Below, piece by piece: positions 3,586 to 49,380 of a stretch of 64,000 nucleotides of DNA. The stretch spans positions 22,113,193 through 22,177,192 of the forward strand of contig NC_089723.1 in the NCBI RefSeq assembly GCF_035083965.1, read 5' to 3'. The DNA is from Branchiostoma lanceolatum. Lineage: Eukaryota > Chordata > Leptocardii > Amphioxiformes > Branchiostomatidae. The position numbers and the translations under genes were made by a program. The notes under the pieces were generated by a model. That model did not search any database. It had not been told where the DNA came from and saw nothing but the letters and a program-made list of their open reading frames with translations. Position 1 is the first letter of the stretch. Each line of letters starts with the position of its first letter.

Positions 3586-3759
3586 GGTCAGCAGTCAGGT
3601 GAGGCGTGAAGTCACGATGGAAATCAAGTCCAGCTAGAGAGGAAGTACTTGAATCGGATGACGTAAAGCTGTGTGACGTCGTATTACATCATTAGCATAT
3701 ATCATCATTTTAATCGTAGCATGCAACGTGTGAACATTTGTTTAAGTCAAACTTGTACG

Positions 3760-3765
3760 AATAAA
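3760..3765 (+). terminator. Poly(A) signal of IF gene 1, unit 1
   Basis: AATAAA lies about 175 bases after the stop codon, and a second AATAAA follows about 30 bases later. The same pair is kept in units 2 and 3, which supports the 3' end of this gene. Confidence 0.6.
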
Positions 3766-3853
3766 TCATGAAATTCAAGAGGCTTCTGAAGAATAAACAT
3801 TTGCTTTGGTAGACCATGACCTAGTGCTATTGTCAATGAATGATTTTTCTTCT

Positions 3854-4246
3854 TCATTTATGAACTGGAGATAGACATTCGAGAGGTAGCCTTACTATGC
3901 TACGGTCACAATTGGAAAAAGTGTGGCGATTAAAAATTATTGCCATAGCGAAGGTGTCTGGGTTGATCTTACTGTCATGTAAGGAAAGTATCAACGTAGC
4001 ACTTATAGTTCTGCCATAATATTTGTTCAAATCGCACTTAGAAATCAGAGAGGCCTCTGCCAAGTTTTTTGAGTCAACAGAGGTTTTGTTGGTGGGAGGC
4101 ATGATGTTCAGCACGTTCTTGAGATAATAGATCAACTGGGGTAGGTTGAAAACCCTTTTCAAAGCTAGAATACTAGATTCGGTGCCCTGAGTACTCCCTG
4201 ACACACTCCCACCAGTACGAAATCGGAAACCACTTAAGTAGGTCAT
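3854..4246 (-). other. Unrecognised open frame between IF gene 1 and GH10 (unit 1)
   Basis: A 130-codon open frame runs antisense to the flanking genes. Related frames are at 27183-27524 and 54622-55014. I do not recognise the product; it contains the stretch LPQLIYYLKNVLNIMPPTNK. The end near 3900 runs into a dispersed repeat that begins GGTCACAATTGG, and in unit 2 an A-run length change alters the C-terminus. Because the units are nearly identical here, persistence of the frame is weak evidence of function. It may be an exon of an unidentified gene, a transposon fragment or chance. Confidence 0.15.
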
Positions 4247-4641
4247 CTGTCATCGACCTGCGTGCTGGGATGCCAGACCGTGCTAAGGAAGGTATAGAGT
4301 GACAGGCGGGCGGACGGATTCCATACATTCCTCTGCAATTCTGGGAATTCTTGTAAAACGGGCGTAAAATATACTATTAAGCTCGCTCTTAAAGGGCGCC
4401 AGACATTTGGAGATAACTTAGTCTTATCATATGTAACAATAGTATTATTATTATTAACAAGGCTAGAAGAGCAACATGTTATTACCCTTAAGATGTGGTA
4501 CAGCTCTAACGACTCCCTCCTGATCAAAGATTTCGACGACACCGTGGGCAGCATCCGGATAAACTTGGAGCGACCTCCGAGCGAGATCCGTTTCCTTGTG
4601 GACGACGCTTCCTTAAAGGAGTTCATGTCTCCCATCACCGA

Positions 4642-4911
4642 CATATTTGCAGGGAGTGATGGTCACGTCAAGGTTTATAAATTCCTGTAATTTTGGTGAC
4701 GTTATGACGTAATATGACGTAATTACGACGTCATCGATGTGATTTTGTTGGCTAAGTAGTGAATTCCCGTCATATCTAAAGGTAGTAAACACAACAGTTT
4801 GTATTAAAATTCGATTTAAGGTATGCAAAGGCATACGACGTTAATGGTAAGTACGTTGACGGCAATATGACGGATCCGCCATCTTGGATCGGGCATTGTG
4901 AAATTTTTGAG
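4642..4911. mobile_element. Remnant of piggyBac-like MITE in GH10, unit 1
   Basis: The sequence from ATATTTGCAGGGAGTGATGG onward matches the inside of the TTAA-flanked element at 61693-62599. Both element ends are gone. The left edge is the breakpoint in the GH10 exon. The right edge is a second deletion of about 560 bp relative to unit 2, with the same TGA at both breakpoints. Confidence 0.6.
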
Positions 4912-7807
4912 ATGGCAAGCATAGGCAGCAGCAAAATGTATGGTGGATAAAACCTGGCTGACTGTGGTATTTTTTTTGTATCGTAGTATCAACACACCGA
5001 ACGCGCATGACATTACAGTAGAGGTAAGTTACGATAAATGGAGTCATCTTCAGAAACAAGTGTTAAAGATACATTGAGTGGTCTCTATTGAAGCGCCGTA
5101 AGGTGGATGTAGAAAATTGTGTTATAACGCAAAGAAGGTTATTTTTTTTTCTTTTGTAGCCTGTGTACATGCATATATGTGTGGGTAAACAGCATGACTC
5201 AAGAAGGTCTGGATGGATTGTTTAATATTTGGCATGTAGGTGATGAGACCAAGAAACTACCAAAGACAGGGGGGCCCTAGTGACGTATTAAGATACTGCT
5301 GCGGAGGTGCGGTTTTGATATCTCGTGTTCTGGATATGCCCTTGTCGTGATTTTTGAGTGGTATATAGTTTTTTGGGCCAAGAGGAATTGGTGTAGATGT
5401 AGTGCCCCCCCCCCGGCATTTTTTAAAACTGCAAAATTTGAAAGAGAATAAAATCAATCAAGAAGTGGTTGACGGATCGTCATGTTTTTTCGTATGCAGA
5501 TCGTGATTATTGATATGATCAAATTATTATTATGCAAACCAATTGAAATTAATCTTTTTGTATATTTGCTTGGCAGGTAGCTCAGACCCGATCCCACTTT
5601 GCCTTTGGGTCGGTCGTCCACGCCAAGCAGATGCCAAGCAACAGTCACCACACAGACTTCTTCTTCAACAACTTCGAGTGGGCCGTTCTGACCACCAGCT
5701 CAAATGGAAGCAAAATGAAAGGAATGAAGTATGTTATTCCTTATCATATGTAGGTGCTTGAACGCATTAACTCCGGCCAGGGCTTGTTTTTTAGCTGAAT
5801 TCATTAGAAGGTGTGAACACTATTGCAAGCAAGATACCTGTAAAAAGTGTGGATGTGAGAAATAGTTCCGATCACGAAGATGCAAATGATATCATCACTT
5901 CTGAAGTTTTGCTGAAGCTATTATGACAACACTCAAGTTATATCAACTCGATTGTCATGCAAACTATGACATATTAACTAGCTGTTCGTATTGATTCTTT
6001 GTTTCGTCTTAGGGACAGTTGACGTTCGACTGGGCAGATCCAACGATCGCACTGCTTGAAAGTCGAGGGTGAGTTGTAATCCTATACTATAGTGGCATGG
6101 ATATGTACTCGTGTAAACAATAGCATGTCTTTGCGTATACATTCTTACAATGTGAACTCTTAACGAACTTATAGCAATTAAGATCACCGTTGGCGTTACA
6201 AAAAAACTTGAGAGTAAGTTCACTACTTACCTTTCCATTTTTTGAAAACTTGCTTATTGCTACGGTCACAATTGGAAAAAAGGGCCACGCCGCGAATAGT
6301 TTACGGGCTGTTTTTGGCACAATCGGGCGTAACCCCTAGCGGTCGGGATTATTTTCGTAAACTCAAGGTTTAAATAACCGCGGGGCCTGGTAACAAATAG
6401 ACACCATAAGGTAATCGTGAGAGCACCGAGAGGTTCCCTTCTCCACCGGGACACATTTATGGCTTTAGGGGGCCAGACCCCTTACGGGCACTGGTGCAAA
6501 TGTGACTGAGGCATAAACAGGGATGGTGAACAATAATATGCAAGTATATGGTACACTTGTTTATCGTTGCTTTTGCTAATCGTTTTTCAACTATTGCCTG
6601 ACCAGGATACCGATTCGCGGGCACAATGTGTTCTGGGGAACCGGAGACTCTCATGTCCCCACCTGGTTGCCGGCGTACTCCGGGTCAGAGCTGGAGCAGA
6701 AGTGCTGGAAACGGGTTGATGACGTCGTGGGTCGGTATGCTGGGAGGTAAACCTTTTTATTTCAATCATTTCACAATACACACAAGTATCATTAAGTACC
6801 ATTAAGCCCCAGAACCATTCTACCTGTATATGTCCTTAATATGAACGTGACTTGCCATGCTAGGTCAGGATTTACAAGTCACACAAGACGTGGTCCAGGG
6901 CAATGATATCTAGATAGTGATATCCTCACCACCCTGGATAGAAGGACGCCTACCACACACAAGCATTATCGAACTAATTCAACCTTCTGAAAACACTTAA
7001 CAGAAAACCCTACTCCCGATAAAAGGTCATAATTTTCACGATCTAATAAAAAGGTCACAATCTTCCCAACCAAACTCAGCTTCGAAAACACTGCATTGTA
7101 CTGTCAGTCTTAATAATCAAAGATATCAATCTATATTATGGAGACGGGATCCGGATAAACTAAGACGTTCTGGTGCTATTTCACATATTGTATTTTGAAG
7201 AAACGAAGCTTTTGCAACCATCTTCTCAAATCTAGCATAAAGATCAGACACTTGAGAATTTGCCACAAAGCTCATTATAAAGTATCATATTAATCGATTT
7301 CTGGGCAATAATTTCTTTCCTCACGCTGTGCCAGGTTGCAACATTGGGACATCAACAACGAGATGCTGCACGGAAACTTCTTCGTGGAGAAAACGGGAAA
7401 CCCGCAGATCCGGTACGAGATGTTCCAGAAGGTGAAGGAGAAGGACCCTGGTGTCAAACTCTTCTTGAACGACTACGGTGTCATCAACAGTGGTGCGATG
7501 ACACAGGTCAGTGGATCTAGTCTGCAACGTTGTCTAATAATCAAAGTCATCCTTTTCTGGCAACGATTGAATACCTTTATCACAGCATATTTGCATAGAC
7601 ATGGCGACGGAAAAAATCAATACTATGTTGCATCCATCCGTCTGCTCATTGATACGTAGCATCGAAAAATACGAGTAAACATGGTTTATTTTAAAATTCT
7701 GCCTTTTCTATACATTTGATAATCGTTTTAAAGTTACACAGGAAGTTGTGTAACCAGCTTCTTAGTAGTTGAGTGCCCAGTACCTTGCACAGATCATGTG
7801 TAATCTT

Positions 7808-9973: not shown

Positions 9974-12900
9974 TCACATGCCGTCGTTTCCAGGTGCCTG
10001 CTGTGCCTGCTGTGCCGCCTGGTCCGGCTGGGGAATCTGGGCTTGTCCAAACAACCTGTGGGACAAATCAAGAGAAATAAACATTATAAGTGGTTAATTG
10101 TAGACTGATTTCTCGTACTAAAGTTCACTGTGACACTCACGAGCAAAGTTGCTTTGGTCAGGTCATTATTTGCGTATGTCAGTTTTTGGTGAAAAGGTTA
10201 AAATCATACACTTTTTTTTTATCTGCACAACCACCCCCCCCCATTAAAATCGGTCGACAAATTACCAATCGAAGCAGAGATATGAACTACGTGCAGATAA
10301 GAAGTCAAGATAAAGAAAATAAAAACAAATGGAATATTGGTACAAATGTACAGCCACGAGTGCTATGGTTTTTTTTCTCTTACAGTTTCATGTAGGCAGC
10401 AATAAGAGAGTTGTTGGTTAACGTTTTTTCAGCTTGAAGCAACTGGAAGTAACAGTTTTACTTCAATTTGCATGTTATGTTTTGACATGGTTAGGCAGAG
10501 CTTTGGGGCTTGTCTATTCCACAGAAAATAAATGTATCAAGCATCAGGTCACAGCAAGTACATGGATGATATCAGCGCGCTCATCAATTTTCGCCTGATT
10601 TTGAAAAGAATCCCATTCAGAGATGGTCAATATGTCTTTCCAAAATGGGAAATATGTCGTGTTGTAGCCTTAATTGTAATTGTAATTCTAGAAGTTTCAC
10701 TTTATTGAATACAGGAATAAAAGACCTGTTGGTTGTTATACCATATTTGTCTATTCAATTCTTTTTACAATGATTATGGTGTCTAATTTGGCCACCTTCT
10801 TTTTCGCCATCTTGTTTTCCTCGCCATCCTTTTCTGTTTTAGGATTCAATTTGAAGTTGATGTCATCCATGAAAATTACTTGTTGTGGCCTCATAGAGTT
10901 GCCTGTTTACCTCATCTCCTCCCCTTCCAACAGCTTCCTGTAAGCTGCTATTTCAATGTCCAGCGCCATTTTGACGTTCATCAGCTCCTGGTAGTTGGTG
11001 AGATTCTGGGCCATCTCCAGCTTCATCTTCTCGATCTGCGCCTCCCGTTTCCCGATGGACTGCCTGTATCCTTCAACCTCCTTCAGCATACAGGTCTCTG
11101 TCAGCTTTAGGCTGTCTTCTAAAGCACCGTTCTGTCAGGAATACAACATAATATATTGGTAAATGATACAGAACATAACACTAACTCTTAGGCAGAAAAG
11201 CAGATATTGGAGAGTCAATAGTTTAGAGACAGGCAGAAATATATAACTAATGGCAATTTACACATCACTCGTTTGAATACAATATTATCAGTCTTATAAT
11301 CCAGTTTAAACATGGTTGAGACATTTGATCACTTTTATAGATATACTAAATACACAACAGAAATAGTTTGTGCCCACGTGTGTTCGGAGATCAGAGGTCT
11401 TGTAGAAGGAAGTATGACTGTTTATGTCCAAAAAAATGTTGAAAAGTCCACAGGCTACCTCACAACACTTATGTTGACAGCATCACACACTCACCTTGCT
11501 CCTGATAGCCTCGGAATCGGCCCTTATGGTGCTGAGCTTCTTTTGGAATTCAGCCACTTCTGTCCTGGCGGCTGCTAGAGCCTCGCTGTCTTTCTCACGT
11601 AGCAGGGCTATCTCCGCAAACTGTCACATATAGCAGCAAAGACAAGTAATCACATATCATTAGTTCCATTGGTGAAGCTAATCATATACTATCATATGGT
11701 TATATATGGTAAAAACTAGTATAAACATTGGCCATTTCAGAATACGGGTTGAAGACTTCATTATATTATCAAACACTGATTCCGGCATCATTTGCCTTGT
11801 GTAACTGGCCTTGGACATAAGACATCAGCTTCGTAGGTCCGCTTTGTGGCTGGTCATACTGCATGAATGTTGCACATTAGATTACGACTTGCCCTACCTA
11901 AACCTTTGCATGTCTACACGCTACTCCCAGCGTCGTTTTTCAGATCTTCTTGGTATTTCTACAACTACAAAGCTGTCTCCTGAAAAGAGGATATTTCTTA
12001 AGCACAAGCGTTCTGTATTAGCCCCATATTTTCTTACCTTCTCCTTGTACTTGGCTTCGGCATCTTGCTTGTTCGCCTGTCCGATCGTCTCGTACTGTTC
12101 ACGGATCTCCTTCAGGGTGTCGCTGAGATCTGGTCCAGTCATCACCGGCTGCTGAGACTCTATCTTAGTCACAGTCAGAGCCAACTCTTCCTGCAGAACT
12201 GTCATCTCCTGTAAAATGTGCCCATATTCATAAAGCGTTCGTGTGGCGTAACGGCAGGGTGTTGGGCCCAGAGTCCATGAAGTTCCGGGTTTCAATCTTA
12301 TCATTTCACCGATCTTGTGCCCGTAAATTGCAAAAAATAATCAGGAAATGATACTAATGTCGTAGAAAGACAAAGTCAATTCCAAATTTAAAAAAAAAAA
12401 AAAAGATGTGAAAGAACAGAAAATCTATTGTATGGTATACCATACTCTGTGTGTTTAGTCATTTGTTCAATCTTCCTGACCAGTTTTAATGATGAATGAA
12501 TACAACTTTTTTTGCTAAACTTTTTTATTCACACACTCGCGTCATGAGTTTTGGGGTTGCCGGAGGATGGCATCCATATAATCGAGTCAATATATGGCTT
12601 TACTTGCAACTAAATTACATACAGACAGACTAGCTTACCTCCGAGTGAGTCTTCCTCACAAACTCAATCTCTTCCTGTGCGACCGCCAGCCTGCTCTCAA
12701 AGCCCGCACGCGCCGCTGTGATGATTTCCAGTTCCTAAAAAAGTATGGATTATTTTAAGGTGGTAAAGTAAAACGTTCTTTATACCCCATTCCTCGAGGA
12801 CGGCGCTCTCGCCGCGCGCTCTATGCGACCTCAGCGCTCAACGAATTTCATTTTTTTTTTTAAAACGAACTTTTTACGCTTTGTGCGTTTTGTTGTCTTT

Positions 12901-13666
12901 TCAGTCATACTTCTACGTTGCATAATATTCCAATTAAGTAATCAAGGATTAGACAAATCTGACGTAGTAAGGGGAAGAAGCTTACCATCTTGTGCTTCTC
13001 AATGTCAGCCTTCAGCTCTGAGCGCACTGATATCTGGTCCTCGCACCTATAACAAAACACGTGGACCATGCTTAGTAACGTTAATAACCGACCGACTGAC
13101 CAACAGACCGACCGACCCACCGATTAGCAAGCCAACCAACCAACCAACCAACCAACCAACCAACCAACCGACCAACCAACCAACCAACCAACTAACCAAC
13201 CAACGTCATACCAACCAATGCGATGAAGAAATAAAGGAACAATTTGTTGAAACCTTGAAATGCCAAGAAATGCGTAGTTAATTGAAAGTAATGAATTTGA
13301 AAGTAATGATATAACGTACTTTCCCTGCCACTCCTCCGCCTGTGTCTGCCAGCTGTTCCTCTCCACCTCCACCTGGGCCTTCTCCTTCGACAGCTCGTCC
13401 ACCTTAGTCCGCAGCTCCTTCAGCATCTCTTCGAACTTTGCCTTGTCGACGGGGGCGGCTTTGACCTGGGCGGCCTGCAGCTGAATCTCCAGGGTGGCGT
13501 TGCTCTCGTTCAGGGCTCGCACCCTGTCGATGTAGGTAGCGAAGCGGTCGTTGAGGATGCCGAGCTCTTTCTTCTCGCTGGCGCGGGTCATCCTGGCGTC
13601 GCTGAGAGTTTGTAGCGCGCCTTCGGAAGTGGTTACAACGGTCTTTCGTGACACCTGAGCGGCCAT
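9974..13666 (-). CDS. Cytoplasmic intermediate filament protein, IF gene 2, unit 1
   Basis: This is a complete IF subunit of 367 predicted residues. Minus-strand exons are 13666-13320 (347 bp), 13046-12986 (61), 12734-12639 (96), 12208-12038 (171), 11620-11495 (126), 11131-10911 (221) and 10055-9974 (82). All junctions are GT-AG and the frame is continuous. The short head starts MAAQVSRKT. Coil 1A begins [19 protein letters not shown]. Coil 2 ends [15 protein letters not shown]. The tail starts RLFGQAQ, is rich in Gln and Ala, and ends GNDGM. The start was chosen because the AUG has good context (AGCATGG) and the frame upstream is closed in this copy. It converges on GH10. Intron 6 holds a MITE and intron 1 a CCAA array. 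No defect is visible. Confidence 0.93.
10547..10890. mobile_element. PIF/Harbinger-like MITE in intron 6 of IF gene 2, unit 1
   Basis: This 344-bp element has inverted ends, GGTCACAGCAAGTA on the left and TACTTGTTGTGGCC (plus-strand reading) on the right. TCA directly flanks both ends, giving a 3-bp target duplication of TNA type. The subterminal motif CATGGATGATATCAGCGCG is echoed inverted at the other end. No transposase is present. The element occupies the same site in unit 2 (38923-39261). Confidence 0.65.
13130..13204. repeat. (CCAA)n microsatellite in intron 1 of IF gene 2, unit 1
   Basis: About 75 bases of CCAA repeats carry occasional G substitutions. The array is shorter in unit 2 (about 41499-41563). 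Open frames across it encode simple Thr-Asn-Gln-Pro or Gly-Trp-Leu-Val repeats and are not genes. Confidence 0.9.
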
Positions 13667-19079: not shown

Positions 19080-21796
19080 TTAGAATATTCCCCTCTGGGT
19101 GGTCATCGTTATTTGTTGGACACCGGTAGATGAAGATGACGAGCTCTGCGAATAGAAGTCAAAGCTAAGTCATGTTTTATTTAATCAACTACGTCTACAA
19201 CGTAAAAGACTTTGATGTCCTTGAGAATTGTTTCTCTTTCACTTTATGTACAGTTTTGGGTTATCAACTTCTCATTACGTCTTGATTAAAGATTCCCTGC
19301 TCCACAAAACCTTAAATTCCTTCCAAAGTCTTGTTTTATCCAAGAAGAGGTTGTTGCAGGGAAGATTTTGACTTTCTTAATTATATGCCCCGCTTTCCTG
19401 TCCGAACACCTCAACAACCTGTCGGAGACTCAAAGTCCTTCCCCGTGCCCCTAAGTTCAGCTATCACTGAATTGGTGAAGGAGATGGTTGTTGGGGAGTT
19501 TGGATACAAACAGGGTGCATCATAAGAATGTCACAACCTTCACAATCAAGCTCTGCTAGAGAGAAACTTCACCTGGCTTTGCAGGGTCTCAGTGCTGGTC
19601 ATGACGGTGTTGAGCTGGCCTCGCAGCTCAGACAACTCCTTACGGGAGGTGATGAGTTCACCCCTGGCGGCCAGCATCGTCTTGCTGTCCCGCTCCCGTT
19701 CGAGCTCAAGCTCGGTGAACTGTGAGGAAACACAAACAGGAAGATTGTACCTCAAGTCAGTTGCTAGTAATGGACATTCACTGCTGGTATACTTTCATTT
19801 CAATGACTTCGTGTTGGCGTAGCGGTTAAGGTGTTTGTCACGTAATACGACTTTCCAATTTCTACCCAGGTGTAAAAATGGGTGCCATACTCCAGTTGAG
19901 GAGGCAAAAATCGATGAAAGGAGAGCGTCGGGCTTTGCCTTCCAACCGTGCCCTAAAAACAGTGGATAACAACGTTAACCCACTGCTTCTACGGCATGCC
20001 TTCATTTTATACTTCCATTCTTTGAATCAATACTGACAAACCTGCTACATTTTGTTACAAAACTGCCAGTTTTTTTGTTTGTTTCTGACCAGAAATTCTC
20101 TTGGCTTTATCACAGCAAACATAACATAGCCATCAAAACAAATGTCAAAGATCCCGATGCAAGGCAACACAGCAAGCAATTTTTTGTGTTTCACCTTCTC
20201 CTTGTACTTGGCCTCTGCTTCCTCCTGAGTGTCCCGGCAGAAGTTATCGTAGATCTGCCGCAGGTCATACAGCTCGGCGATGACGTCAGGTCCAGCTTCC
20301 TGGGTCTGCTCCACTGCGACAATGGACAGGCTCTGGTTCAACTGGTCTTGAAGTTGTTTCAGTTCCTGCAATTCACAATTAGGAACTCATGGGAATATCC
20401 AGATTTATGACATTTCCAAGGCATAGATAGCTCATTGTTCTACCCGGTTAGGCCCCCATTTTACCGGACGGCGAACGCGCTTCGACCTCGCTGTACCATT
20501 ATATGGATTTGTGTTACTTTTGCCTTTTGAACTGGAGTATTATGCATAATGTAAAAGTATGGCTGAAAAGACAACAAAACACACAAAGCGTAAAAAGATC
20601 CCTTTTATACACAATAAATTCGTCAACTCGCTCGATCGGTCGCGGCGAGGTCGCAATGAGGTCGCCGGCCTAGTGGAACGTAGCTAAGTGTAAGTAGTAT
20701 AACTATAATAAGCAATGAATGAATGACGCATGTTGTCACTCCGTGGCCTGAAGCAATACTAACACCAATATTGTAAAATTGACACGTAACGTTACCTGCT
20801 TGTGAACCGTCACCATGAAATCGATCTCTTCCTGCATAGTAGCAAGCTTATTCTGGAGGTCCACACGTATCAGTGTAACAGCGTACAGGTCCTAGAGGAA
20901 GAAAACAATGTCAAGTAGATAACTCCTTCCTATCTATGCTTTGCAGATAAACAGGAGGAATATTGTACAGTAAGACATTCCAAACATGGTAAGCACAAGA
21001 ATCAGATCCATGATTTTATTGGGTATCGACCTGACATGTTAGCATAGGACTTACTTTATTGAGCTTTGCAACCTCAGTATTAAGCTCGGCGTGCCAGGCC
21101 GCCTCGTCCTCCCACCTGTGTAGCAACAAACAGTCAGCAAACATTCAGTATATAGTTGATAACACAGATGGAAACAATCATTTCAACTACTCGACACCTT
21201 CTCTTGCCAACTGTACACTCAGGTAGTGAGCGTTTCTTACACCCAGCACTAGCCACATTTCTTTTCTTCCATGGAAATGTTACGCTTACAAGACAGGCCT
21301 TACTGAATAAATCGGAGCTTGTGCCAAAACAATCTTACTTTTTCTTATATTCCTCAGCCTGATCCCTCCATTTGTTCCTCTCCAGCACCATTTTGGCCTT
21401 GTCTTCGGACAGCTCGTCGACCAGCTTCCGCAGGTCTTTGGTCTCCTTCTCGTACAGCGCCTTCGTGTGTGCCGTCGTCTCAGTCGCCTGTAGCTTCAGA
21501 ACCTGCACCTCCAGGGCGGAGTTGCGTTGTTGGAGGGAGCGCATATTCTGGATGTAGGAGGCGAAGCGGTTGTTCAGGGAGGACAGTTCCTCCTTCTCTT
21601 GGGACCGGGCCTTGCGGGCGCCGGCCATGGTCTGCAGCGCGCCGCCCGCCCCTCCCAGCGAAGTGATGACATTGCCCGCTCTGATGGACCGTGTTCTTGC
21701 CTTGAACGATTCGGCTTCGCCTCTGTCGGCCAGAGAGGATCTCACAGAGCTACGAATCGCCTCGCTCGTTTTCGGTTGAGTCGTTACGACGGACAT
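19080..21796 (-). CDS. Intermediate filament protein lacking the coil-2 end exon, IF gene 3, unit 1
   Basis: Minus-strand exons are 21796-21339 (458 bp), 21115-21055 (61), 20891-20796 (96), 20365-20195 (171), 19719-19573 (147) and 19145-19080 (66), giving 332 predicted residues. The head of about 75 residues starts MSVVTTQPKTSEAIRSS. Coil 1A is LNNRFASYIQNMRSLQQRN, which resembles type II keratins. Exon 5 is 21 bp longer than in IF genes 1 and 2, one heptad. No equivalent of the 221-bp exon with YRKLLEGEE was found in the 427-bp intron that follows, nor elsewhere in the spacer. Exon 5 ends in phase 0 and the tail exon starts in phase 0 after GCAG, so they join in frame to a Ser-rich tail ending TTQRGIF. 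The protein may be unable to assemble normally. Head-to-head with IF gene 1 of unit 2. Confidence 0.8.
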
Positions 21797-23012: not shown

Positions 23013-26000
23013 ATGGCTAGCAAAGCAGCACGAGCGGGCGTTGGCGGTGCAAAGCCCGTTGTCGCCCCCGCCATCCCGACCGAAGGAGCGCTGCAGACCC
23101 TCGCTGACGCCAGGGCGACCCGCAGCAGTGAGAAGAGGGAGCTGGTGGTCCTGAACGACCGCTTCGCCAACTACATCGAGAAGGTGCGCTCCCTGCAGGA
23201 GCGGAACACCAAGCTGACGACCCAGATCAGGATCCAGGAGGCGCGGGAGGAGACCGACATCGCGGAGCTGTACGAGACGGAGCTGACGGAGCTGAGGGCG
23301 CTGGTGGACCAGCTGACTCAGGAGAAGGCTCAGCTGGACTCCGAGAGCGCCAGCTGGCAGGCACGGACTCAGGAGTGGCAGGCCAAGTAAGTCCACAGTT
23401 TCCTCTTTCATGTTTCACTCCATACCGTAGGTTTACGAATATTATTGAACATAGCTTTTGACCAGAAACTAGAATGTACTGATCGTTTTAACTGACCATG
23501 ACAGTTTCAGACTCAATATGAGGTTATTAGGGCTAGAGCAAATTGACGTTGAAATGAACATTTATCGATGTGACTACTCGTCAGGTGCGAGACCGAGACT
23601 GCCACGACTGAGGCCATGCGGACAGAACTGGCAACGGTCAAAACGGTGTGTCTTCTCTTTCCGTTAAATCTCCATATTGCTGATATGCTATGGATATATT
23701 CAACTGTTTAATGCGATCTTTTATACCTATTTTGTTCTTCTAATTTCTCATCCCATTTAGTCACTAGTCTAACTATTTGACCGTTGGGGTACCACAGAAG
23801 ATCTGGCAACCAGTTTTCTCCTCCCTTCTCGGTTTTCTGTTCATCTTAGTGTTTCAAGTAGCTTCATGTCTGTCAGTTCTTTGATATTATCCCTCGTCGC
23901 CTACCTATCTTTTTCCTCCCTGGACGCTTCCTTGCTCGTTTTGGCTCATACCGATCGTACCACTTCAGTTTTCTTTTCTTTACTGTGGTGAGGAGGTGTT
24001 ATATATGGTCTTACGGACCGATGTTCGTTTAACTCTAGATCTGTATTGTACGTCAGTATTTTAGATGGCTCCCGGCATAGAATCTTCCGGAAGCATTTCT
24101 TCGTTCACTGTGTACTGTACATATTGTAATGGTATGCTAGGTACATGCAAACAGTTGTTCAAAGAGATAAGAGGTTCTGCAATCTGTTTTCCAGGAGGTA
24201 GATGCGGCGACTGTGGAGCGTGTTGGAGTGGAAAACAAGCTGACCACCGCGCAGGAGGAGATTGAGTTCCTCAAGAGGGTCTATGATGAGGTGAGCATGT
24301 CCTTGTCACCGTGAATAACTTCATGAGGTTGGTTAATGACTGTATAGCAAAGATCTGTATTTACAGCCACATATTCATCAAGAGCCGACGTTTCGATGAT
24401 CGTCTGTCATCTTCTTTGGGGCAATTCTGACTGGTTCACTGTGCCCTGACTATGTATGTGACAATACGTTACGTTTGGGACCGCATTGTTAGCAGTAACA
24501 CTTACTTCAGTGCACAGTGAACAAGTCAGAATTACCTTGATGAAGATGGCAGACGGCTCTTGTTAAATATGTGGTTTTGAATAAAAAGACTTTGCTATTC
24601 ATGTCTTCGTCACGTTAGAACCATCCCGGAATTGTATTTGTGCTCCAGATAAACTGTTAAGGATTATGGAACTCAAGCTTGACGCTGTAGATAGAAGACA
24701 CATGTATCGAATAATGATACGACTTTTGAATACACAAGAAAGAACAAACATCCATCGAAGGCTTTGTTACTTAAACGTTTAAGTTGCACTGAACTTAGAC
24801 AGACTGTACACTCAATCAATTAATTTCCGAATCCGCGGGCATCAACTGGCGATACATTTCGGCTGTAGACATATCTCTATTATAACAATGTATTGTATTC
24901 ATACAATACCATACATACTGCTATACACTCACAACGATAATCAAATATCCTTACCATGTAAGTTTTGCACCATTACAGGAGACGCGTAAGGTGCAGTACC
25001 AGTTTAACCAGACCGTGGCCATTGTTGAGACCGAGGCTCCGATCATCACTGGACCTGACCTGAGCGAGACTCTGCGTGAGATCCGCATGCAGTACGAGAT
25101 CATGGGACGGGCAAACAGGGAAGAGGCCGAGGCCAAGTACAAGCTCAAGGTGAGACCATTACCAATACTGTGATCACAATCAGAAAAAGGGTCCCCACCG
25201 GGGAGTTTTCGGAGTTTTTTTTTCTTTTTTACTTTCGGGCGTGACCCCTAGCTAGCCCCGTTGGACACCCTGCGGCTATCGGGCTATTTTGGCGCATGTC
25301 CGGGTCCTCAGATGTATTTAACTCGTAGTTAGAATATCCCCCAGGACCTGGTGACGAATTGACGCCTAAGGACCATGAAAAGTGAGAAAAAAAGATATGT
25401 TATACCGTACCTCACATATATTAAGCAATATCCTAATTATTGGCACTATTCCAAAGTACAATTGTAAATATACTTCCTTGTATACTACTTATTTGTCAAC
25501 ATTGTTATCTTACACTATCTGTTTTCTTTTTCTATAAACAGATTATGTTGCGAATAGCCCTGGGGCAAGGACTCTGGCTAAATATTGACGTAATATTCGA
25601 GTTGCATGAACATTGTTGTGTATAATGCATATAGCCAGACGAGTTATGATTCTCGTCCTCTTGAACGGTAGGAAAAATGCCTTTAGTCCAATATTCAGTC
25701 ATAACTCATAACAAATATTTCAAAACAAAACAAAGCAATTCTAACGTTGGTATTGTTTTCTTTTTTTCCAGTTCAGCGAGTTGGCCCAGCAGCGGGAGCT
25801 GGATAACGACGCTCTGGTCTCCGCCCGGTCCGAGCTGACCAACCTGAAGAGGATGCTTCAGTCTATCGTCACCGAGACAGAGGCACTCAAGAACAAGGTT
25901 GAGTCATCGCCTTACCTTGGTTATGCTACGGTCACAATTGGGCAAAGGGGCCCCAATGGGTAGTTAACAGTTTGTTTATGTGCAATTTCGGGCGTGGCCA

Positions 26001-26862
26001 CTGGGTCCACTCTGTGACTACCGGGCTATTTTTGGCACGGCCGAGCTCCGGGTTGATTTTAACTCGGAGTTCAAATAAGCCCGTGACCCGTTGACAAATA
26101 GACGCCGAAGCTTATCATGGGATCACCGAGAGGTACCTCCCAGTTTTCGTAGTCCACCGGGACACATTTGTGACTTCGACGCCCGGCCGGGGCTACACCC
26201 TCTACGGGCACGTTGACCGTAGCATTTCAGCAACATTCCACTCGGGCGGCGACCTCCCTGCAACAGAGCTATTTGACAGATCGATCAGCGAATTTCATAG
26301 ATTAAAAACGAACCTTTTTTGTGTTTGTGTGTTTATTGTGTTTTCAGTCCACTGTAGTATGAAATCAGAGAGAAAGTAAAAAAAATAATGTGTCTTCTTT
26401 ACTAGACCGGGTCCCTGGAGACGAACATCGCGGAGACAGAGGCCCGCCGTCTGAAGGAGATTGAGGAGTACAAGCTGGCGATCGGCGAGCTGGAGCAGCA
26501 GATCGAGAAAATGAAGCTGGAGATGACGCAGCACACCGTGGAGTACCAGGAGCTCATGAACATCAAGATGGCGCTGGACGTGGAGATAGCGGCCTACAGG
26601 AAGCTGCTGGAAGGGGAGGAGTTGAGGTGGGGTTATTTTCGTCACATCACATTAATATTCAATCTCAATATGGGCTAATGTTGACATATTTGGATCTTAT
26701 AGAATCTGAAAAGACTTATGCTCAGAAAATAGAATCTATATCGCCATCGTAAACGCCCATCGCTATTCATATTGTAAACACTCATTTCTTGCAATTTTCT
26801 TGTTTGAATGATTTCCACTATACAGGCTCTTCAGCGAAGCCCAACCAAAACGTCAAACGTGA
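23013..26862 (+). CDS. Cytoplasmic intermediate filament protein, IF gene 1, unit 2
   Basis: This is a complete IF subunit of 361 predicted residues. Exons are 23013-23386 (374 bp), 23585-23645 (61), 24195-24290 (96), 24979-25149 (171), 25772-25897 (126), 26406-26626 (221) and 26826-26862. The AUG has strong context (GCCATGG). The head of about 40 residues starts [15 protein letters not shown]. The rod runs from [19 protein letters not shown] to [13 protein letters not shown], and the tail is [12 protein letters not shown]. The RLF at the start of the tail exon is shared with IF gene 2, which supports this splice. A second open frame in the same exon runs to a TAG at 26912-26914 and could be reached by an acceptor at 26867-26868. 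Poly(A) signals lie at 27037-27042 and 27069-27074. Confidence 0.95.
24332..24600. mobile_element. Foldback MITE in intron 3 of IF gene 1, unit 2
   Basis: This is the unit 2 counterpart of the element at 1203-1496. It has the same GAGCCGACGTTTCGATG motif and long inverted arms, but several internal deletions in the right arm, including loss of CATCGAAACGT. Confidence 0.75.
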
Positions 26863-27749
26863 GGTCAGCAGTCAGGTGAGGCGTGAAGTCACGATGGAAA
26901 TCAAGTCCAGCTAGAGAGGAAGTACTTGAATCGGATGACGTAAAGCTGTGTGACGTCGTATTACATCATTAGCATATATCATCATTTTAATCGTAGCATG
27001 CAACGTGTTAACATTTGTTTAAGTCAAACTTGTACGAATAAATCATGAAATTCAAGAGGCTTCTGAAGAATAAACATTTGCCTTGCTAGACCATGACCTA
27101 GTGCTATTGTCAATGAATGATTTTTCTTCTTCATTTATGAACTGGAGATAGACATTCGAGAGGTAGCCTTACTATGCTACGGTCACAATTGGAAAAAAGT
27201 GTGGCGATTAAAAATTATTGCCATAGCGAAGGTGTCTGGGTTGATCTTACTGTCATGTAAGGAAAGTATCAACGTAGCACTTATAGTTCTGCCATAATAT
27301 TTGTTCAAATCGTACTTAGAAATCAGAGAGGCCTCTGCCAAGTTTTTTGAGTCAACAGAGGTTTTGTTGGTGGGAGGCATGATGTTCAGCACGTTCTTGA
27401 GATAATAGATCAACTGGGGTAGGTTGAAAACCCTTTTCAAAGCTAGAATACTAGATTCGGTACCCTGAGAACTCCCTGACACACTCCCACCAGTACGAAA
27501 TCGGAAACCACTTAAGTAGGTCATCTGTCATCGACCTGCGTGCTGGGATGCCAGACCGTGCTAAAGAAGGTATAGAGTGACAGGCGGGCGGACGGATTCC
27601 ATACATTCCTGTGCAATTCTGGGAATTCTTGTAAAACGGGCGTAAAATATACTATTAAGCTCGCTCTTAAAGGGCGGCAGACATTTGGAGATAACTTAGT
27701 CTTATCATATGTAACAATAGTATTATTATTATTAACAAGGCTAGAAGAG
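26863..27749. other. Intergenic region between IF gene 1 and GH10, unit 2
   Basis: This holds the IF gene 1 3' UTR and poly(A) signals, then the minus-strand open frame 27183-27524 of unknown identity. I looked here for upstream GH10 exons (N-terminal half of the carbohydrate-binding domain, signal peptide) and found none. Confidence 0.45.
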
Positions 27750-28093
27750 CAACATGTTATTACCCTTAAGATGTGGTACAGCTCTAACGACTCCCTCCTG
27801 ATCAAAGATTTCGACGACACCGTGGGCAGCATCCGGATAAACTTGGAGCGACCTCCGAGCGAGATCCGTTTCCTTGTGGACGACGCTTCCTTAAAGGAGT
27901 TCATGTCTCCCATCACCGACTGGAGGTCTGAGGCAGACGCACGGATAGAACAGATCCGCAAGAGAGACGTCAAACTCCGGTGAGAAGAAATGAGAAATTA
28001 TACATAACCTATTTACTGATATTTGACAAGATTCAGAAGCTGGTGGCATACGTAGACAAGGATTTGTTCACATTTGCGAATATTTTCATCGGG

Positions 28094-28290: not shown

Positions 28291-28574
28291 CCAGGAAAAA
28301 TGGAGATATAGTTTTGAGCGTGTCTTTTTGTCTGTTTGTCATCTGTTTGTCAACCATGTTGTGAAGTTGGCACCAAGAAATGCATGGTGCACCAACTGCA
28401 GAATTTACATATACGTGCACGCCGACAGAAGACCGAATCGCTTGAAATTGTCACCATAAAATTTTAACTGTACTATGATATTTTACTGTATAGTTGCTGT
28501 ATAGCACGGTATTTTGCTGTACTTCACAGCGCAATTCAGGAATCCAATGCAATTAATGGTGACCTGTCATCATT

Positions 28575-29162
28575 TGTAAACATTTGTAAACAGTTGTTAA
28601 CAGTTGTTAACAGTTGTTAACAGTTGTTAACAGTTGTAAACATTTGTAAACTTTTGTAAACTTTTGTAAACATTTGTAAACATTTGTAAACTTTTGTAAA
28701 CATTTGTAAACTTTTGTAAACTTTTGTAAACATTTGTAAACTTTTGTAAACTTTTGTAAACTTTTGTAAACTTTTGTAAACTTTTGTAAACATTTGTAAA
28801 CTTTTGTAAACTTTTGTAAACTTTCGTAAACTTTTGTAAACATTTGTAAACTTTTGTAAACTTATGTAAACTTTTTTAAACTTTTGTAAACATTTGTAAA
28901 CTTTTGTAAACTTTTGTAAACTTTTGTAAACATTTGTAAACTTTTGTATACTTTTGTAAACTTTTGTAAACTTTCGTTAACATTTGTAAACTTTTGTAAA
29001 CTTTTGTAAACATTTGTAAACTTTTGTAAACTTGTGTAAACAGTTGTAAACTTTTGTAAACATTTTGAACTTTCGTTAACATTCGTAAACTTTTGTAAAC
29101 TTGTGTAAACTTTTGTAAACATTTGTAAACTTTTGTAAACTTATCTAAATTTTTGTAAACAT
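28575..29162. repeat. 10-bp minisatellite in GH10 intron 1, unit 2
   Basis: About 59 tandem copies of a decamer, mostly CTTTTGTAAA or CATTTGTAAA with CAGTTGTTAA variants at the left edge. A few units carry an indel that shifts the register near 29060. Minus-strand frames read through it as a repeated Lys-Phe-Thr-Lys-Val-Tyr-Lys pattern; these are by-products of a period whose threefold multiple is 30. Confidence 0.95.
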
Positions 29163-29583
29163 TTAGAGATGTAGTTTTGGGTGTGTCTGTGTGTGTTTCC
29201 GGACTACTGTAAGCAGCATAACTCAAGTACCTCTTGATATGATGGAATTACGATGATATTCGGTATATGGGCGGGTGTTGAGAATCCAAAATTCAAGGTC
29301 TATTTTGGGCCCCCTGGTAAGTGACCTTGGTACTGCAGCAGAACTTTTTCTATCTTTTGACCTATGGTCTTGATTGTTTGTGTCAGATAGCTTGTGATGT
29401 AATGAAGAGGTGGTTAATGTTTGGGCCCCTGGCAGCTTATTCTGGAACTGCATGGGCGTTATTGTGAAAATCTTCTAAGGAGAATAACTGAACAGAGGAA
29501 TGTTAGATTTTCATATTTAGTATGCAGGTAGCTTGGACAGAGATGTAAGTAATGAAGTGCAAATAATGCTAATTGGGACTTAA

Positions 29584-34905: not shown

Positions 34906-37676
34906 CGATAAGTATATGGTATTATGGTACACTTTTTTACCGTTGCTTTTGCTGACCTTTTTTTTTTCAACCATTGCCTGACCAGGATACCGATTCGCGG
35001 GCACAATGTGTTCTGGGGAACCGGGGACACCCAAGTCCCCACCTGGCTGCCGGCGTACTCCGGGTCAGAGCTGGAGCAGAAGTGCTGGAAACGGGTTGAT
35101 GACGTCGTGGGTCGGTATGCTGGGAGGTAAACCCTTTTATTTGAATCATTTCACAATACACACAAGTATCATAAAGCCCCAGAACCATTCTACCTGCATA
35201 TGTCCTTAATATGAACGGGACTTGCCATGCAAGGTCAGGATTTACAAGCCACACAAGACGTGGTCCAGGGCCATGATACCTAGATAGTGATATCCTCACC
35301 CCCCTAGATAGAAGGAAGCCTACCACACACAAGCATTATTGAACTAACTCAACCTTCTGAGAACACTTAACAGAAAACCCTACTCCCGAAAATTTGTCAT
35401 AATCTTCACGATTTGATAAAAAGGGCACCATCTTCCCAACCAACCTCAGCTTCGAAAACACTGCATTGTACATCAGTCTTAATCAAAGGTCTTAATCTAT
35501 TTTAGGAAGACGGGATCCGGATAAACTAAGACGTTCTGGTGCTATTTCACACATTGTATTTTGAAGAAACGAAACTTTTGCAACCATCTTCTCAAATCTA
35601 GCATCAAGATCAGACACTTGAGAATTTGCCTCAAAGCTCATTATAAAGTATTATAATAATCGATTTGTGGGCAATATTTTCTTTCCTCACGCTGTGCCAG
35701 GTTGTAACATTGGGACATCAACAACGAGATGCTGCACGGAAACTTCTTCGTGGAGAAAACGGGAAACCCGCAGATCCGGTACGACATGTTCCAGAAGGTG
35801 AAGGAGAAGGACCCTGGTGTCAAACTCTTCTTGAACGACTACGGTGTCATCAACAGTGGTGCTATGACACAGGTCAGTGGATCTAGTCTGCAACGTTGTC
35901 TAATAATCAAAGTCATCCTTTTCTGGCAACGATTGAATACTTTTATCACAGCATATTTGCATAGACATGGCGACGGAAAAAATCAATACTATGTTGCATC
36001 CATCCGTCTGCTCCTTGATACGTAGCATCGAAAAATACGAGTAAACATGGTTTATTTTAAAATTCTGCTTTTTCTATACATTTGATAATCGTTTTAAAGT
36101 TACACAGGAAGTTGTGTAACCAGCTTCTTAGTAGTTGAGTCCCAGTACCTTGCACAGATCATGTGTAATCTTATATATATATATAATATATGTATATACA
36201 TTTAAAAGAAATTGTAAAGCCTAAGTATGCATGCAAGAGATAAACGATGGTCATCATTGTGTTTTCCACAGGCGTACGTGCAGCAAGCGGAGGAGTTCCT
36301 CGCTAACGGAGCTCCAGTCGACGCGATCGGAGCTCAGGGACACTTCAAAAGCCGCCCTGATCCCGTCCTTTTCAAGGTACTGTTTCGATGTCATAACCTT
36401 TTAAAATTTTCCTTGACCTTGCAATGGATTTAGAGAAGCACCAATACTTATCAACATATACACCAACGATTGCCTTTTAGGTATTTTCATATTGACGTGA
36501 CAATTTATCTTCCAAATATACAGCAAATACAATTTATCATCTAAGATGATTAATGTACACATTTGAGATCATAAACTGAGTTTACAAGACTCAATTTTTT
36601 TCCTTTACAGAGTCGCTTGGACCTTTTGGCCACTGCCGACCTGCCCATCTAGGTAACGGAGATGACCGTAGCCGAGCTAGACGAGTTGGAGAGGGCGACG
36701 GGTTACGAGGACGCCTTGCGGGTCGCCTTCAGCCACCCGGCCGTAGAAGGAATCCTTCTGTGGTCCTCCTTTGGCATTGCGAATTTTGGCGATCCTTTAA
36801 CTGCAATTGCCAGTGGAGATAACGTTGAGGTTCTGTACAAATTTATGTATCCAACATATCATTGATGTCGTCATAAACATTCAAATGTCACATGTGGTCC
36901 TCCTTTGGCAGTGCGAATTTTGGCGAACCTAAAACTTCTATTGCCAGTGAATATAACTTAAAAAACAATATATCTAAGATATCCTTGATGTCATCATAAT
37001 GTCAAAATGTTTACAGAACAATTAAAGATTACAGTTACAGAGCAGCCACTCTTAGGACTCAATAGACGCGATAACAGTGAGCAACACATTCTTAGCATTA
37101 ACTGCCTTTGGGTCGAAACGTTACGCTCTCTACATGGTAAGGATAGTTGCCATATTATGTATGTCAATGTATCTGGAAATTTTCTCGTATTAACGCACGG
37201 CTACGTATACTCGAGTACAGCTTATGTAATACATGCTTTTCCTTGATCTTAGGGCTTTACTTATCGTGCTCTGAATCTTTGTCGGTACAGCTCAACGAGG
37301 CCGGTCGCCGCTGGCGGCAGCTGGTCTTCACCGACTGGCGCACCAACCTGTCCCTGCATCACGGCACCACGACGCCAGCTGGGCAGGAGTTCGACTTCCG
37401 CGGTTTCCATGGAAACTACGAGATCAAAGTCAAGTTCCACGGCCAGGTGGCGGCCACCAAGACCTTCTCCCTGACACCTGGAGACGGACCGATGGTCGTG
37501 GATATAGACATGCCTAATGACGTCATTGTTGGCTGAGAGGCTACAGCTTATACATGTAGATGTCTACATTTATCTGATGATGAAAATGCAGAATAAAGTG
37601 GAAAAGATCGAATCACTTCAAGTCTCGGGCATCAGTTCATATTTCCTGTCATTGTTTAGTAAGAAGACAGTACATT

Positions 37677-46859: not shown

Positions 46860-49380
46860 TTAGAAAATATCCCTCTGGGTTGTCATCGTTACTTGTTGGA
46901 CACCGGTAGATGAAGTTAACGAGCTCTGCAAACAGAAGACAGAGCCGAGTTTATTTTTTGTTTAAAAAAAAAACTTCTCAACTATGTCTACAATGTAAAA
47001 GACTTTGCGGTCCTTAATAGTTGTGCTTCTCCTTTCCTTGACGAACTTACGTGTTGCTTAGACATAACCTGATTTGAAAGAAGAAAAAATGATGAGTGTT
47101 TGTGTTATTAATGCGACTCCTTCAAAGATTTCCTGCTCCACAAAACATAACATTTTTACCACAAAATCGTGGTTCTCATTTAAAATCAACTGATGACCCT
47201 CTGCTTCACGATGCATACAACATTGTATTTACTGGTGACCATGACTTGGCTAATCCTGTTAAAGACATTCATTAAATTTTAATTCTATACCATTGTTTGA
47301 TAGTTGTAAACATACATTGTACCGTATACGACGGTCGTGCAATAAATTTCTTCTTTATCGTAACTTCACCTGGCTTTGCAGGGTCTCCGTGGTGGTCATA
47401 ACGGTGTTGAGCTGTCCTCGCAGCTCGGACAGCTCTTTACGGGAGGTAATGAGTTCACCCCTGGCGGCCAGCATCGTCTTGCTGTCCCGCTCCCGTTCGA
47501 GCTCAATCTCGGTAAACTAGAGGGAAACGCGCACAGGAAAGTGTTTTTCTATCTTATCATCAGACTATATTGATATTACAGGAAACATTTTATCATATGC
47601 CATACAATAATTTTACGATATCAGTACTGAAAAAAAACTGCCACATTCTGTGCGTTGTTTTCTTTGTTTTGATCAGAAATTCTTTTCGCTTCTTTATATC
47701 AAATTGCACAGCCATCTAAACGAATTTCAAAGTTCCCCAGTTATGTATGTCAACACAACATCAGAATTTATCTTTCTGTGTCTCACTTTCTCCTTGTACT
47801 TGGCCTCTGCTTCCTCCTGAATGTCCCGGCAGAAGTTTTTATAGATCTGCCGCAGGTCATACAGCTCAGCGATGACATCAGGTCCAGCTTCCTGGGTCTG
47901 CTCCACGGCAACAATGGACAGGCTTTGGTTCAACTGGTCTTGAAGTTGCTTCAGTTCCTGCAATTGAGAACTCATGAGAATATCCGGATTTAGGACATGT
48001 CCGGGCATAGATAGCTCCTTGTAACTTTTTCATTAGTTAGGTTCCCATTCTACCAGACAGCTATCGCGCTGCGACCTCGCTGTGACCTTGCCTGAATTTG
48101 TGTAAGCCTTGACTTTTGAATTGGAATAAGTATGAAGCATTATGCACAGTATGGCTGAAAAGACAACAAAGCACACAAAGGGTATACTTGAAAGATTCGT
48201 TTTGTTATCCATGAAATTCGTTAAAAGCTGTCAAATTGCTTGGTCGCAGTGCGGTGCACTGGCCTCGTGGAGTTGCAACTAAGCAATGAATGTTTAGGTA
48301 ATATGAAGTATGTTGATAATTTGTGTCCAGACGCAATAGTAACACTAATATTGATACGTACCTGCTTGTGAACCGACACCATGAAATCTATCTCTTCCTG
48401 CATAGTAGCAAGCTTATTCTGGAGGTCCACACGTATCAGTGTCACGGCGTACAAGTCCTAGAGATAAGACGTAAAGTACTAGGTATATCTTGTATATGAA
48501 TAACTTTGTCTATAAACAAAAAAATATCGTACATTGTACAGTAAGACAGCTCAAATATGGTAAACACAAGAATCAGATCCCTAATTTGATTGGGTACATG
48601 TACAATAACCTGAAATACTAGAAGAATATGAAACCTACTTTATTGAGCTTTGCAACCTCAGTATTCAGCTCGGCGTGCCAGGCCGCCTCATCGTCCCACC
48701 TGTGTAGCAGCAAACAGTCAGCAAACATTCAGTATATAGTTGACAACACAGAAGGGCATAATCATTTTAACTACTCGACACCTTCTCTTGCCACCTGTAC
48801 ACTCAGGTAGTGAGCGTTTTTTACACCCAGCACTTACCACATTACTTTTCTTCCATGGAAATATTACGCTTACAAGACAGGCCTTACTGAATAAATCGGA
48901 GCTTGCGCCAAAACAATCTTACTTTTTCTTGTACTCCTCAGCCTGATCCCTCCATTTGTTCCTCTCCAGCACCATCTTGGCCTTGTCTTCGGATAGCTCG
49001 TCGACCAGCTGCCGCAGGTCTTTGGTCTCCTTCTCAAACAGCGCCTTCGTGTGTGCCGTCGTCTCAGTCGCCTGTAGCTTCAGAACCTGCGCCTCCAGTG
49101 CGGAGTTGCGCTGTTGGAGGGAGCGCATATTCTGGATGTAGGAGGCGAAGTGGTTGTTCAGGGAGGACAGTTCCTCTTTCTCTTGGGACCGGGCCTTGCG
49201 TGCGCCGGCCATGGTCTGCAGCGCGCCGCCCGCCCCTCCCAGCGATGTGATGACATTGCCCGCTCTGATGGACCGTGTTCTTGCCTTGAGCGATTCGGCT
49301 TCGCCTCTGTCGGCCAGAGAGGATCTCACAGAGCTACGAATCGCCTCGCTCGTTTTCGGTTGAGTCGTTACGACGCTCAT
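46860..49380 (-). CDS. Intermediate filament protein lacking the coil-2 end exon, IF gene 3, unit 2
   Basis: Minus-strand exons are 49380-48923 (458 bp), 48699-48639 (61), 48457-48362 (96), 47957-47787 (171), 47516-47370 (147) and 46925-46860 (66), giving 332 residues. The head starts MSVVTTQPKTSEAIRSS. Coil 1A reads LNNHFASYIQNMRSLQQRN, with His in place of the usual Arg/Lys. As in unit 1, exon 5 carries an extra heptad, and no exon with YRKLLEGEE is present between exon 5 and the tail exon (444 bp) or beyond. The tail exon keeps its acceptor, phase and stop and ends TTQRDIF, although the surrounding intron has diverged. That both copies share the missing exon means the loss predates duplication. 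Confidence 0.8.

What the first reader, a model, noticed from the sequence alone, without database searches (positions are those of the whole stretch)
19080..21796. IF gene 3 lacks the exon for the end of coil 2 and the helix-termination motif, yet stays in frame
Seen: exon 5 (19719-19573) ends in phase 0, a 427-bp intron follows, and a Ser-rich tail exon (19145-19080) starts in phase 0. No 221-bp exon with a [13 protein letters not shown] end is present there or in the spacer. Unit 2 has the same structure. Known: this motif is among the most conserved parts of IF proteins and is needed for normal filament assembly. Inference: the locus may make a rod-truncated, possibly regulatory or dominant-negative IF, or be an old degenerate gene.
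Basis: partly seen in the sequence, partly recalled or inferred. Interest (0 to 1): 0.8.

Follow-up and report, generated by a model that had tools for sequence, protein, structure and literature searches.

The report
Rod-truncated intermediate filament gene pair
An animal carries two copies of a gene for a cell-skeleton (intermediate filament) protein from which the normally indispensable end of the rod is missing, and natural selection has preserved what remains, so this looks like a working shortened filament protein and not a wreck.

Summary
Gene 3 (21796-19080, minus strand) splices into one 999-nt frame through six exons with GT-AG introns. Unit 2 (49380-46860) has the same exon lengths, donor, phase-0 acceptor and stop. 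The five other IF genes in the window keep a 221-bp exon ending YRKLLEGEE. No such exon or recognisable remnant was found near gene 3, although a remnant diverged beyond about 40-50% would be missed. The rod stops after about 246 of 313 Pfam filament positions.

The "old degenerate gene" reading is contradicted. Exons 2-5 of the two copies differ by 22 synonymous but only 7 nonsynonymous changes (Ks 0.25, Ka 0.019, omega 0.08), while intron 5 is down to 61% identity. The helix-initiation motif is also altered: LNNR in copy 1, LNNH in copy 2.

I infer a selected, rod-truncated subunit that can still dimerise and form half-staggered tetramers but cannot elongate normally. Its nearest parallels are lens filensin and the Alexander-disease truncation of GFAP (residues 1-311). 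Expression and assembly are untested. The short Ser-rich tail is conserved in sequence but not shown to be under protein-level selection.

The parts
21339..21796 (-). gene 3 unit 1 exon 1: head of about 64 residues, altered helix-initiation motif LNNRFASYIQNMRSL, start of the rod
   Evidence: unit 2 copy 96.7% identical
21055..21115 (-). gene 3 unit 1 exon 2 (61 bp, same length as in paralogues)
20796..20891 (-). gene 3 unit 1 exon 3 (96 bp, same length as in paralogues)
20195..20365 (-). gene 3 unit 1 exon 4 (171 bp, same length as in paralogues)
19573..19719 (-). gene 3 unit 1 exon 5 (147 bp = 126 + 21), the last rod exon; ends phase 0 at a CAG|gtgaag donor
   Evidence: omega 0.069, Fisher p 2.1e-4 between units
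19146..19572 (-). intron 5 of unit 1 (427 bp); no 221-bp exon or detectable remnant
   Evidence: 60.8% identity to unit 2 with 95 gap columns
19080..19145 (-). gene 3 unit 1 tail exon, SSSSSSTGVQQITMTTQRGIF-stop
   Evidence: 59 of 66 identical to unit 2, no indel; omega 0.55, not significant
48923..49380 (-). gene 3 unit 2 exon 1 (LNNH at the helix-initiation motif)
48639..48699 (-). gene 3 unit 2 exon 2
48362..48457 (-). gene 3 unit 2 exon 3
47787..47957 (-). gene 3 unit 2 exon 4
47370..47516 (-). gene 3 unit 2 exon 5 (147 bp)
46860..46925 (-). gene 3 unit 2 tail exon, SSLTSSTGVQQVTMTTQRDIF-stop
23013..26862 (+). full-rod paralogue A, unit 1 (126-bp exon 5, 221-bp exon 6 with YRKLLEGEE at 26406-26626); other copies at 50670-54353 and, cut by the window edge, 1-3585
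9974..13666 (-). full-rod paralogue B, unit 1 (126-bp exon 5, 221-bp exon 6 at 10911-11131); second copy 38340-41992

Best explanation
Gene 3 is a real protein-coding intermediate filament gene whose rod ends early: about the last fifth of the rod (some 67 of 313 model positions, the end of coil 2 with the helix-termination motif) is missing. It has been kept in that form by purifying selection in two tandem copies. SHOWN: the open spliced frame; the same truncated structure in two diverged copies; strong constraint on the remaining rod; the missing exon; an altered helix-initiation motif. INFERRED: the protein keeps coil 1 and the first part of coil 2, so it can pair through coiled coils and form half-staggered antiparallel tetramers, with itself or with the full-rod neighbours A or B. 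Lacking the termination end, and with a changed initiation end, it cannot make the normal end-to-end overlap that joins unit-length filaments. When co-assembled it would limit length or branching, or specialise the filament, in the manner of filensin in lens beaded filaments. My probabilities: real truncated protein about 0.85; assembly-modifying heteropolymer partner about 0.5 given that it is real.
For: Open spliced frame and matching splice sites in both units. Exons 1-5: 32 synonymous and 14 nonsynonymous changes, omega 0.118, Fisher p 5.7e-12. Exons 2-5: 22 against 7, Ks 0.25, omega 0.076, p 1.4e-10. If one copy were free of constraint and the other frozen, about 47 nonsynonymous changes would be expected in exons 2-5; 7 are seen in both together (conditional binomial p 1.2e-5). 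The Pfam filament model matches with 161.7 bits but only from position 1 to 260 of 313 (about 246 without the tail), against 1-313 for A and for B. No exon 6 found nearby. In the literature, GFAP 1-311 forms paracrystals best modelled by antiparallel dimers in phase through helix 1B, and cytoplasmic aggregates (PMC11900225, passages and section 14). Filensin combines an altered LGER initiation motif, an altered termination motif and a 29-residue truncation within coil 2, and co-polymerises with phakinin (PMC10626283, passages).
Against: No transcript, protein or second-species evidence was available. The tail exon shows no protein-level selection (omega 0.55, p 0.63), and conservation continues past its stop. 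The head alone shows no significant constraint either (5 changes, omega 0.56, p 0.62). In cells the GFAP forms C-delta-121 and delta-Ex6 gave cytoplasmic aggregates, so simple co-assembly is not assured. Keratin 14 R125H can still form filaments with wild-type K5 under certain conditions, so the initiation change alone need not matter. Which partner gene 3 has, if any, is unknown, and nothing links its expression to A or B.
Confidence: 0.55

Rival explanations
1. Gene 3 makes a structural protein of its own: the truncated rods build paracrystal-like or lattice assemblies and are not a brake on other filaments.
For: GFAP 1-311 forms ordered paracrystals with a 22-nm repeat by itself (PMC11900225). 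The strong selection on the rod fits any coiled-coil assembly.
Against: Nothing here tests assembly. In cells the GFAP truncation gives aggregates.
Confidence: 0.22
2. The full rod is restored by splicing from gene 3 exon 5 into an exon 6 not recognised here, for example the exon 6 of gene B about 8.4 kb downstream on the same strand (read-through transcript).
For: Gene 3 exon 5 ends in phase 0, B exon 6 starts in phase 0, and both are on the minus strand.
Against: Gene 3 has its own acceptor and stop, shared by both units. The hybrid would carry 7 extra residues in coil 2 compared with A and B. No other convincing exon-6 match in the window.
Confidence: 0.08
3. An old degenerate gene (pseudogene) that still looks intact by chance or by recent gene conversion.
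For: The 5' part (head, intron 1) is more alike between units than the rest (head Ks 0.039, intron 1 93.7%), so some conversion is likely. One LNNH change hits a motif position that is the same in A and B.
Against: Exons 2-5 have Ks 0.25 yet omega 0.076, with open frames and splice sites in both copies.
Confidence: 0.06
4. Assembly artefact or misplaced alternative haplotypes: exon 6 was lost from the assembly, or the two units are alleles.
For: Units are very alike in places (B copies Ks 0.021), and this kind of animal can be very polymorphic (recalled).
Against: Both units lack exon 6 although intron 5 differs strongly between them (60.8% identity), the window has no N, and gene 3 exons 2-5 have Ks 0.25, far above the B copies. 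If they were alleles, the truncation would still be shared.
Confidence: 0.04

Closest known systems
Filensin (BFSP1), lens beaded-filament protein
   Same: A natural IF protein with altered initiation and termination motifs and a truncation within coil 2; co-polymerises with phakinin. From passages of PMC10626283.
   Different: Filensin loses 29 residues within coil 2, keeps a recognisable though altered termination segment and has a long tail. Gene 3 loses about 67 rod positions and the whole termination motif and has a 21-residue tail.
GFAP+1 splice forms (delta135, delta164, delta-exon6) of human GFAP
   Same: IF products lacking exon 6 or coil 2B sequence; passages of PMC11658191.
   Different: Less common splice variants of a gene that also makes the full rod, caused by a frame-shift. 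In gene 3 the exon is absent from the gene, and the following exon is in frame.
GFAP C-delta-121 (residues 1-311), Alexander disease nonsense allele
   Same: Ends at or near the exon 5/6 border (the paper places residues 312-340 in exon 6; that 311 is the border is my reading), close to where the gene 3 rod ends (PMC11900225).
   Different: A disease allele, whereas gene 3 is a constrained gene in two copies.
Keratin 14 R125H and neighbours
   Same: The unit 2 initiation motif has H where A, B and unit 1 have R; K14 R125 lies in the initiation motif and R125H perturbs keratin networks (PMC8714116 passages). That the Arg of LNDR is K14 R125 is recalled.
   Different: Natural sequence of a wild gene, not a disease allele; the next residue back is also changed (LNN), and the rest of the context differs.
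Cephalochordate cytoplasmic IF proteins
   Same: Chordate-type short coil 1B: gene 3 aligns to vimentin without a large coil 1B gap. Tandem IF genes.
   Different: Species not identified by any search. Four searches with amphioxus, Branchiostoma or lancelet terms (4 of 4, 2 of 2, 20 of 51 and 15 of 24 papers listed) listed no title on a rod-truncated one; apart from passages of PMC8733776 only listings were seen.

Membership tests
Cytoplasmic intermediate filament proteins (Pfam PF00038) | Significant match to the filament rod model | tested here: met
   161.7 bits, E 4.3e-47, cut-off 40; vimentin E 1.1e-28
Cytoplasmic intermediate filament proteins (Pfam PF00038) | Complete rod over the whole model | tested here: not met
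   Profile 1-260 of 313, of which the last 14 or so fall on the tail; A and B give 1-313
Cytoplasmic intermediate filament proteins (Pfam PF00038) | Helix-termination motif YRKLLEGEE | tested here: not met
   Absent from gene 3 and its surroundings; five copies elsewhere in the window
Cytoplasmic intermediate filament proteins (Pfam PF00038) | Helix-initiation motif LNDR | tested here: not met
   LNNR in unit 1, LNNH in unit 2; LNDR in A and B
Cytoplasmic intermediate filament proteins (Pfam PF00038) | Conserved exon lengths of the rod | tested here: inconclusive
   61, 96 and 171 bp shared with A and B; exon 5 is 147 not 126; the 221-bp exon is missing
Cytoplasmic intermediate filament proteins (Pfam PF00038) | Forms 10-nm filaments alone or with a partner | not testable with these tools
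   needs purified protein
Chordate-type (short coil 1B) IF proteins | No 42-residue lamin-type insert in coil 1B | tested here: met
   Alignment to vimentin across coil 1B without such a gap; the 42-residue criterion is recalled
Pseudogene | Broken frame or splice sites, or relaxed constraint | tested here: not met
Dominant-negative or assembly-limiting IF subunit | Blocks or shortens filaments of a partner | not testable with these tools
   inference only

The most novel reading that the evidence does not exclude
A dedicated, selectively maintained filament terminator: a gene family member that has lost the termination end of its rod and altered the initiation end, and whose normal job is to cap or limit intermediate filaments built by its full-rod neighbours. 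This would be a chain-stopper for a cytoskeletal polymer not generally thought (recalled) to have capping subunits of its own kind.
Probability: 0.3. Interest if true: 0.82.

Novelty: new variant of a known kind. Interest (0 to 1): 0.62.

Why it matters
The two ends of the IF rod are critical for assembly, and variations there can cause disease (PMC10626283, passages). Here the coil 2 end is missing from almost the same place as in an Alexander-disease GFAP allele, yet what is left is under strong selection in two gene copies. If the protein is made, it is a natural test of which interactions the rod end is needed for. It could also be an evolved regulator of filament length, which could be tested directly by mixing it with A or B.

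Tried and rejected
Degenerate-gene reading: rejected on Ka/Ks.

Hidden exon 6: profile searches at protein and DNA level (the output was cut, so I saw the best protein hits and the end of the listing with the DNA table). Unit 2 intron 5 gave 1.6 bits in one frame, equalled or beaten by 2 of 200 shuffles. Unit 1 intron 5 was equalled or beaten by 118 of 200. The two spacers gave no reported hit. The aligned piece of unit 2 does not look like a rod, and four regions were tested, so I treat it as noise, but a very decayed remnant is not excluded. Control: a B exon 6 with random substitutions, set in a shuffled intron, was recovered at 10 bits or more in 50 of 50 trials at 10% and at 20%, 49 of 50 at 30%, 29 of 50 at 40% and 3 of 50 at 50%.

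Whether the extra 21 nt of exon 5 is the start of exon 6 or a one-heptad insertion: undecided. Ungapped scores beat gapped for the two B copies (76 and 78 against 70) and lose for the three A copies (63-66 against 71) (printed before that script failed). A local A/B profile aligned unit 1 with an insertion and unit 2 without. The Pfam match lengths and the vimentin alignment favour no insertion.

Tail under selection: not shown.

Structure prediction was not tried: it accepts only sequences read directly from the window DNA, spliced proteins are not contiguous there, and a lone coiled coil would say little.

Full report
WHAT IS THERE. The window holds seven IF genes in a tandem arrangement: three copies of A (plus strand; the first is cut by the window edge), two of B (minus) and two of gene 3 (minus). 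Gene 3 of unit 1 splices through six exons with canonical sites into a 332-residue protein, and unit 2 does the same with identical exon lengths. In A and B of unit 1, exons 2-6 are 61, 96, 171, 126 and 221 bp, the last carrying YRKLLEGEE near its end, followed by a tail exon entered in phase 2. Gene 3 has 61, 96, 171 and 147 bp, then a 66-bp tail exon entered in phase 0. Skipping exon 6 in A or B would shift the frame because 221 is not a multiple of three; in gene 3 the join is in frame.

IS EXON 6 REALLY ABSENT. The termination motif occurs five times in the six-frame scan, always in A or B. A nucleotide profile built from the five real exons finds those five (E at most 4.7e-69) and then noise from E 0.041, at 60.2 kb. 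The next protein-profile hits are at E 6 or weaker. A shuffle test of both introns and both downstream spacers gave nothing convincing; its limits and the one marginal score (2 of 200 shuffles, unit 2 intron 5) are in Tried and rejected. If the exon 5 donor is not used, the frame stops after 8 codons in unit 1 and 4 in unit 2, so any product of these exons lacks the rod end unless a distant exon is spliced in.

WHERE THE ROD STOPS. Pfam PF00038 matches residues 66-325 to positions 1-260 of 313, equal lengths. Rod exons end at residue 311, so about 246 positions remain and about 67 are gone. Vimentin aligns from residue 54 to 313 of gene 3, ungapped over the exon 5 part, and pairs TETLQSQ of gene 3 with NESLERQ. 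A aligns to the same vimentin stretch with the start of its exon 6, TGSLETN. On that view exon 5 of gene 3 covers the first seven codons of exon 6. A one-heptad insertion is the alternative, and the tests split. The best heptad register and core composition of these 49 residues are the same as in A and B.

SELECTION. Between units, exons 1-5 show 32 synonymous and 14 nonsynonymous changes, omega 0.118, p 5.7e-12. Exons 2-5 show 22 and 7, Ks 0.25, Ka 0.019, omega 0.076. Exon 5 alone gives omega 0.069. The head (2 and 3 changes, omega 0.56) and the tail (2.5 and 4.5, omega 0.55) are not significant. If one copy were neutral and the other frozen, about 47 nonsynonymous changes are expected in exons 2-5 against 7 seen in both together; the conditional binomial p is 1.2e-5. 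Introns 2-5 are 60-73% identical with many gaps, while intron 1 is 93.7% and the head Ks is 0.039, which suggests gene conversion at the 5' end. The 3' half with the truncation lies outside that more similar stretch, so the shared truncation probably predates the split of the copies; conversion elsewhere is not excluded. The tail exon is 59 of 66 identical without indels. None of 1164 overlapping 66-column windows that touch neither exon 5 nor the tail reaches 59 (maximum 56), but conservation continues past the stop.

THE OTHER END. The initiation motif LNDR of A and B is LNNR in unit 1 and LNNH in unit 2. By recall this Arg is K14 R125, which PMC8714116 (passages) calls the most frequently mutated K14 residue, linked to over 30% of reported severe epidermolysis bullosa simplex. 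That paper also reports that R125H can still form filaments with wild-type K5 under certain conditions, so LNNH alone need not block assembly.

MECHANISM. Published deletions tell what such a rod can do. GFAP 1-311 makes paracrystals best modelled by antiparallel dimers in phase through helix 1B, and aggregates in cells; a rod with residues 312-340 removed makes rod-like aggregates (PMC11900225, passages and section 14). Filensin, with both motifs altered and 29 residues of coil 2 missing, makes filaments with phakinin (PMC10626283, passages). I therefore infer dimer and half-staggered tetramer formation but failure of normal elongation, with a role as a partner subunit that modifies or limits filaments. 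Dimerisation, partner and effect are all inferred.

KNOWN OR NEW. Rod-shortened IF products are known as splice variants (GFAP+1, PMC11658191 passages), as disease alleles and, more mildly, as filensin. I found no described gene in which the whole exon with the termination motif is absent while the rest is under selection. The searches behind that statement are in one open-licence library. I saw their listings, which were partial for all but, and passages of five papers, plus one section, so it is a weak negative. The source animal is not identified by any search; I believe it is a cephalochordate (recall). No genome was held.

VERDICT. Observation confirmed; degenerate-gene reading contradicted; functional truncated IF likely; regulatory role open.

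Noticed in passing
38421-38340 (gene B unit 2 tail exon): In-frame stop right after EGEEMRLF in B unit 2, where B unit 1 reads Gly; B2 would be nearly tailless with a full rod.
   Followed up: no
21827-21078 against about 49411-48662: Exon 1 and intron 1 of the two gene 3 copies are more alike (93-98% per block) than the flanks and the 3' introns, a likely gene conversion tract.
   Followed up: partly
7312-7656 (similar copy near 35708-36022): Exon-like ORF with a weak glycosyl hydrolase family 10 match (21.3 bits, cut-off 22.1) between the IF genes; only the first copy was scanned. Two other ORFs of this stretch gave no family and a weak sub-threshold one.
   Followed up: partly
43550-44551: Reverse-transcriptase fragments (PF00078, E 3.2e-17 and 3.8e-07) in the spacer downstream of gene 3 unit 2; the self-comparison, filtered at 200 bp, lists no match for this stretch in unit 1.
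   Followed up: partly
28573-29164 and 56055-56543: Arrays of short tandem repeats, seen as many self-matches offset by multiples of about 10 bases.
   Followed up: no
1-4642 against 50794-55410 and 23137-27920: Gene A copies 0 and 2 are 98% identical over 4.6 kb, while copy 1 matches copy 0 at 83-84% in the first 2.9 kb and 98% after that, a mosaic that also suggests conversion.
   Followed up: no
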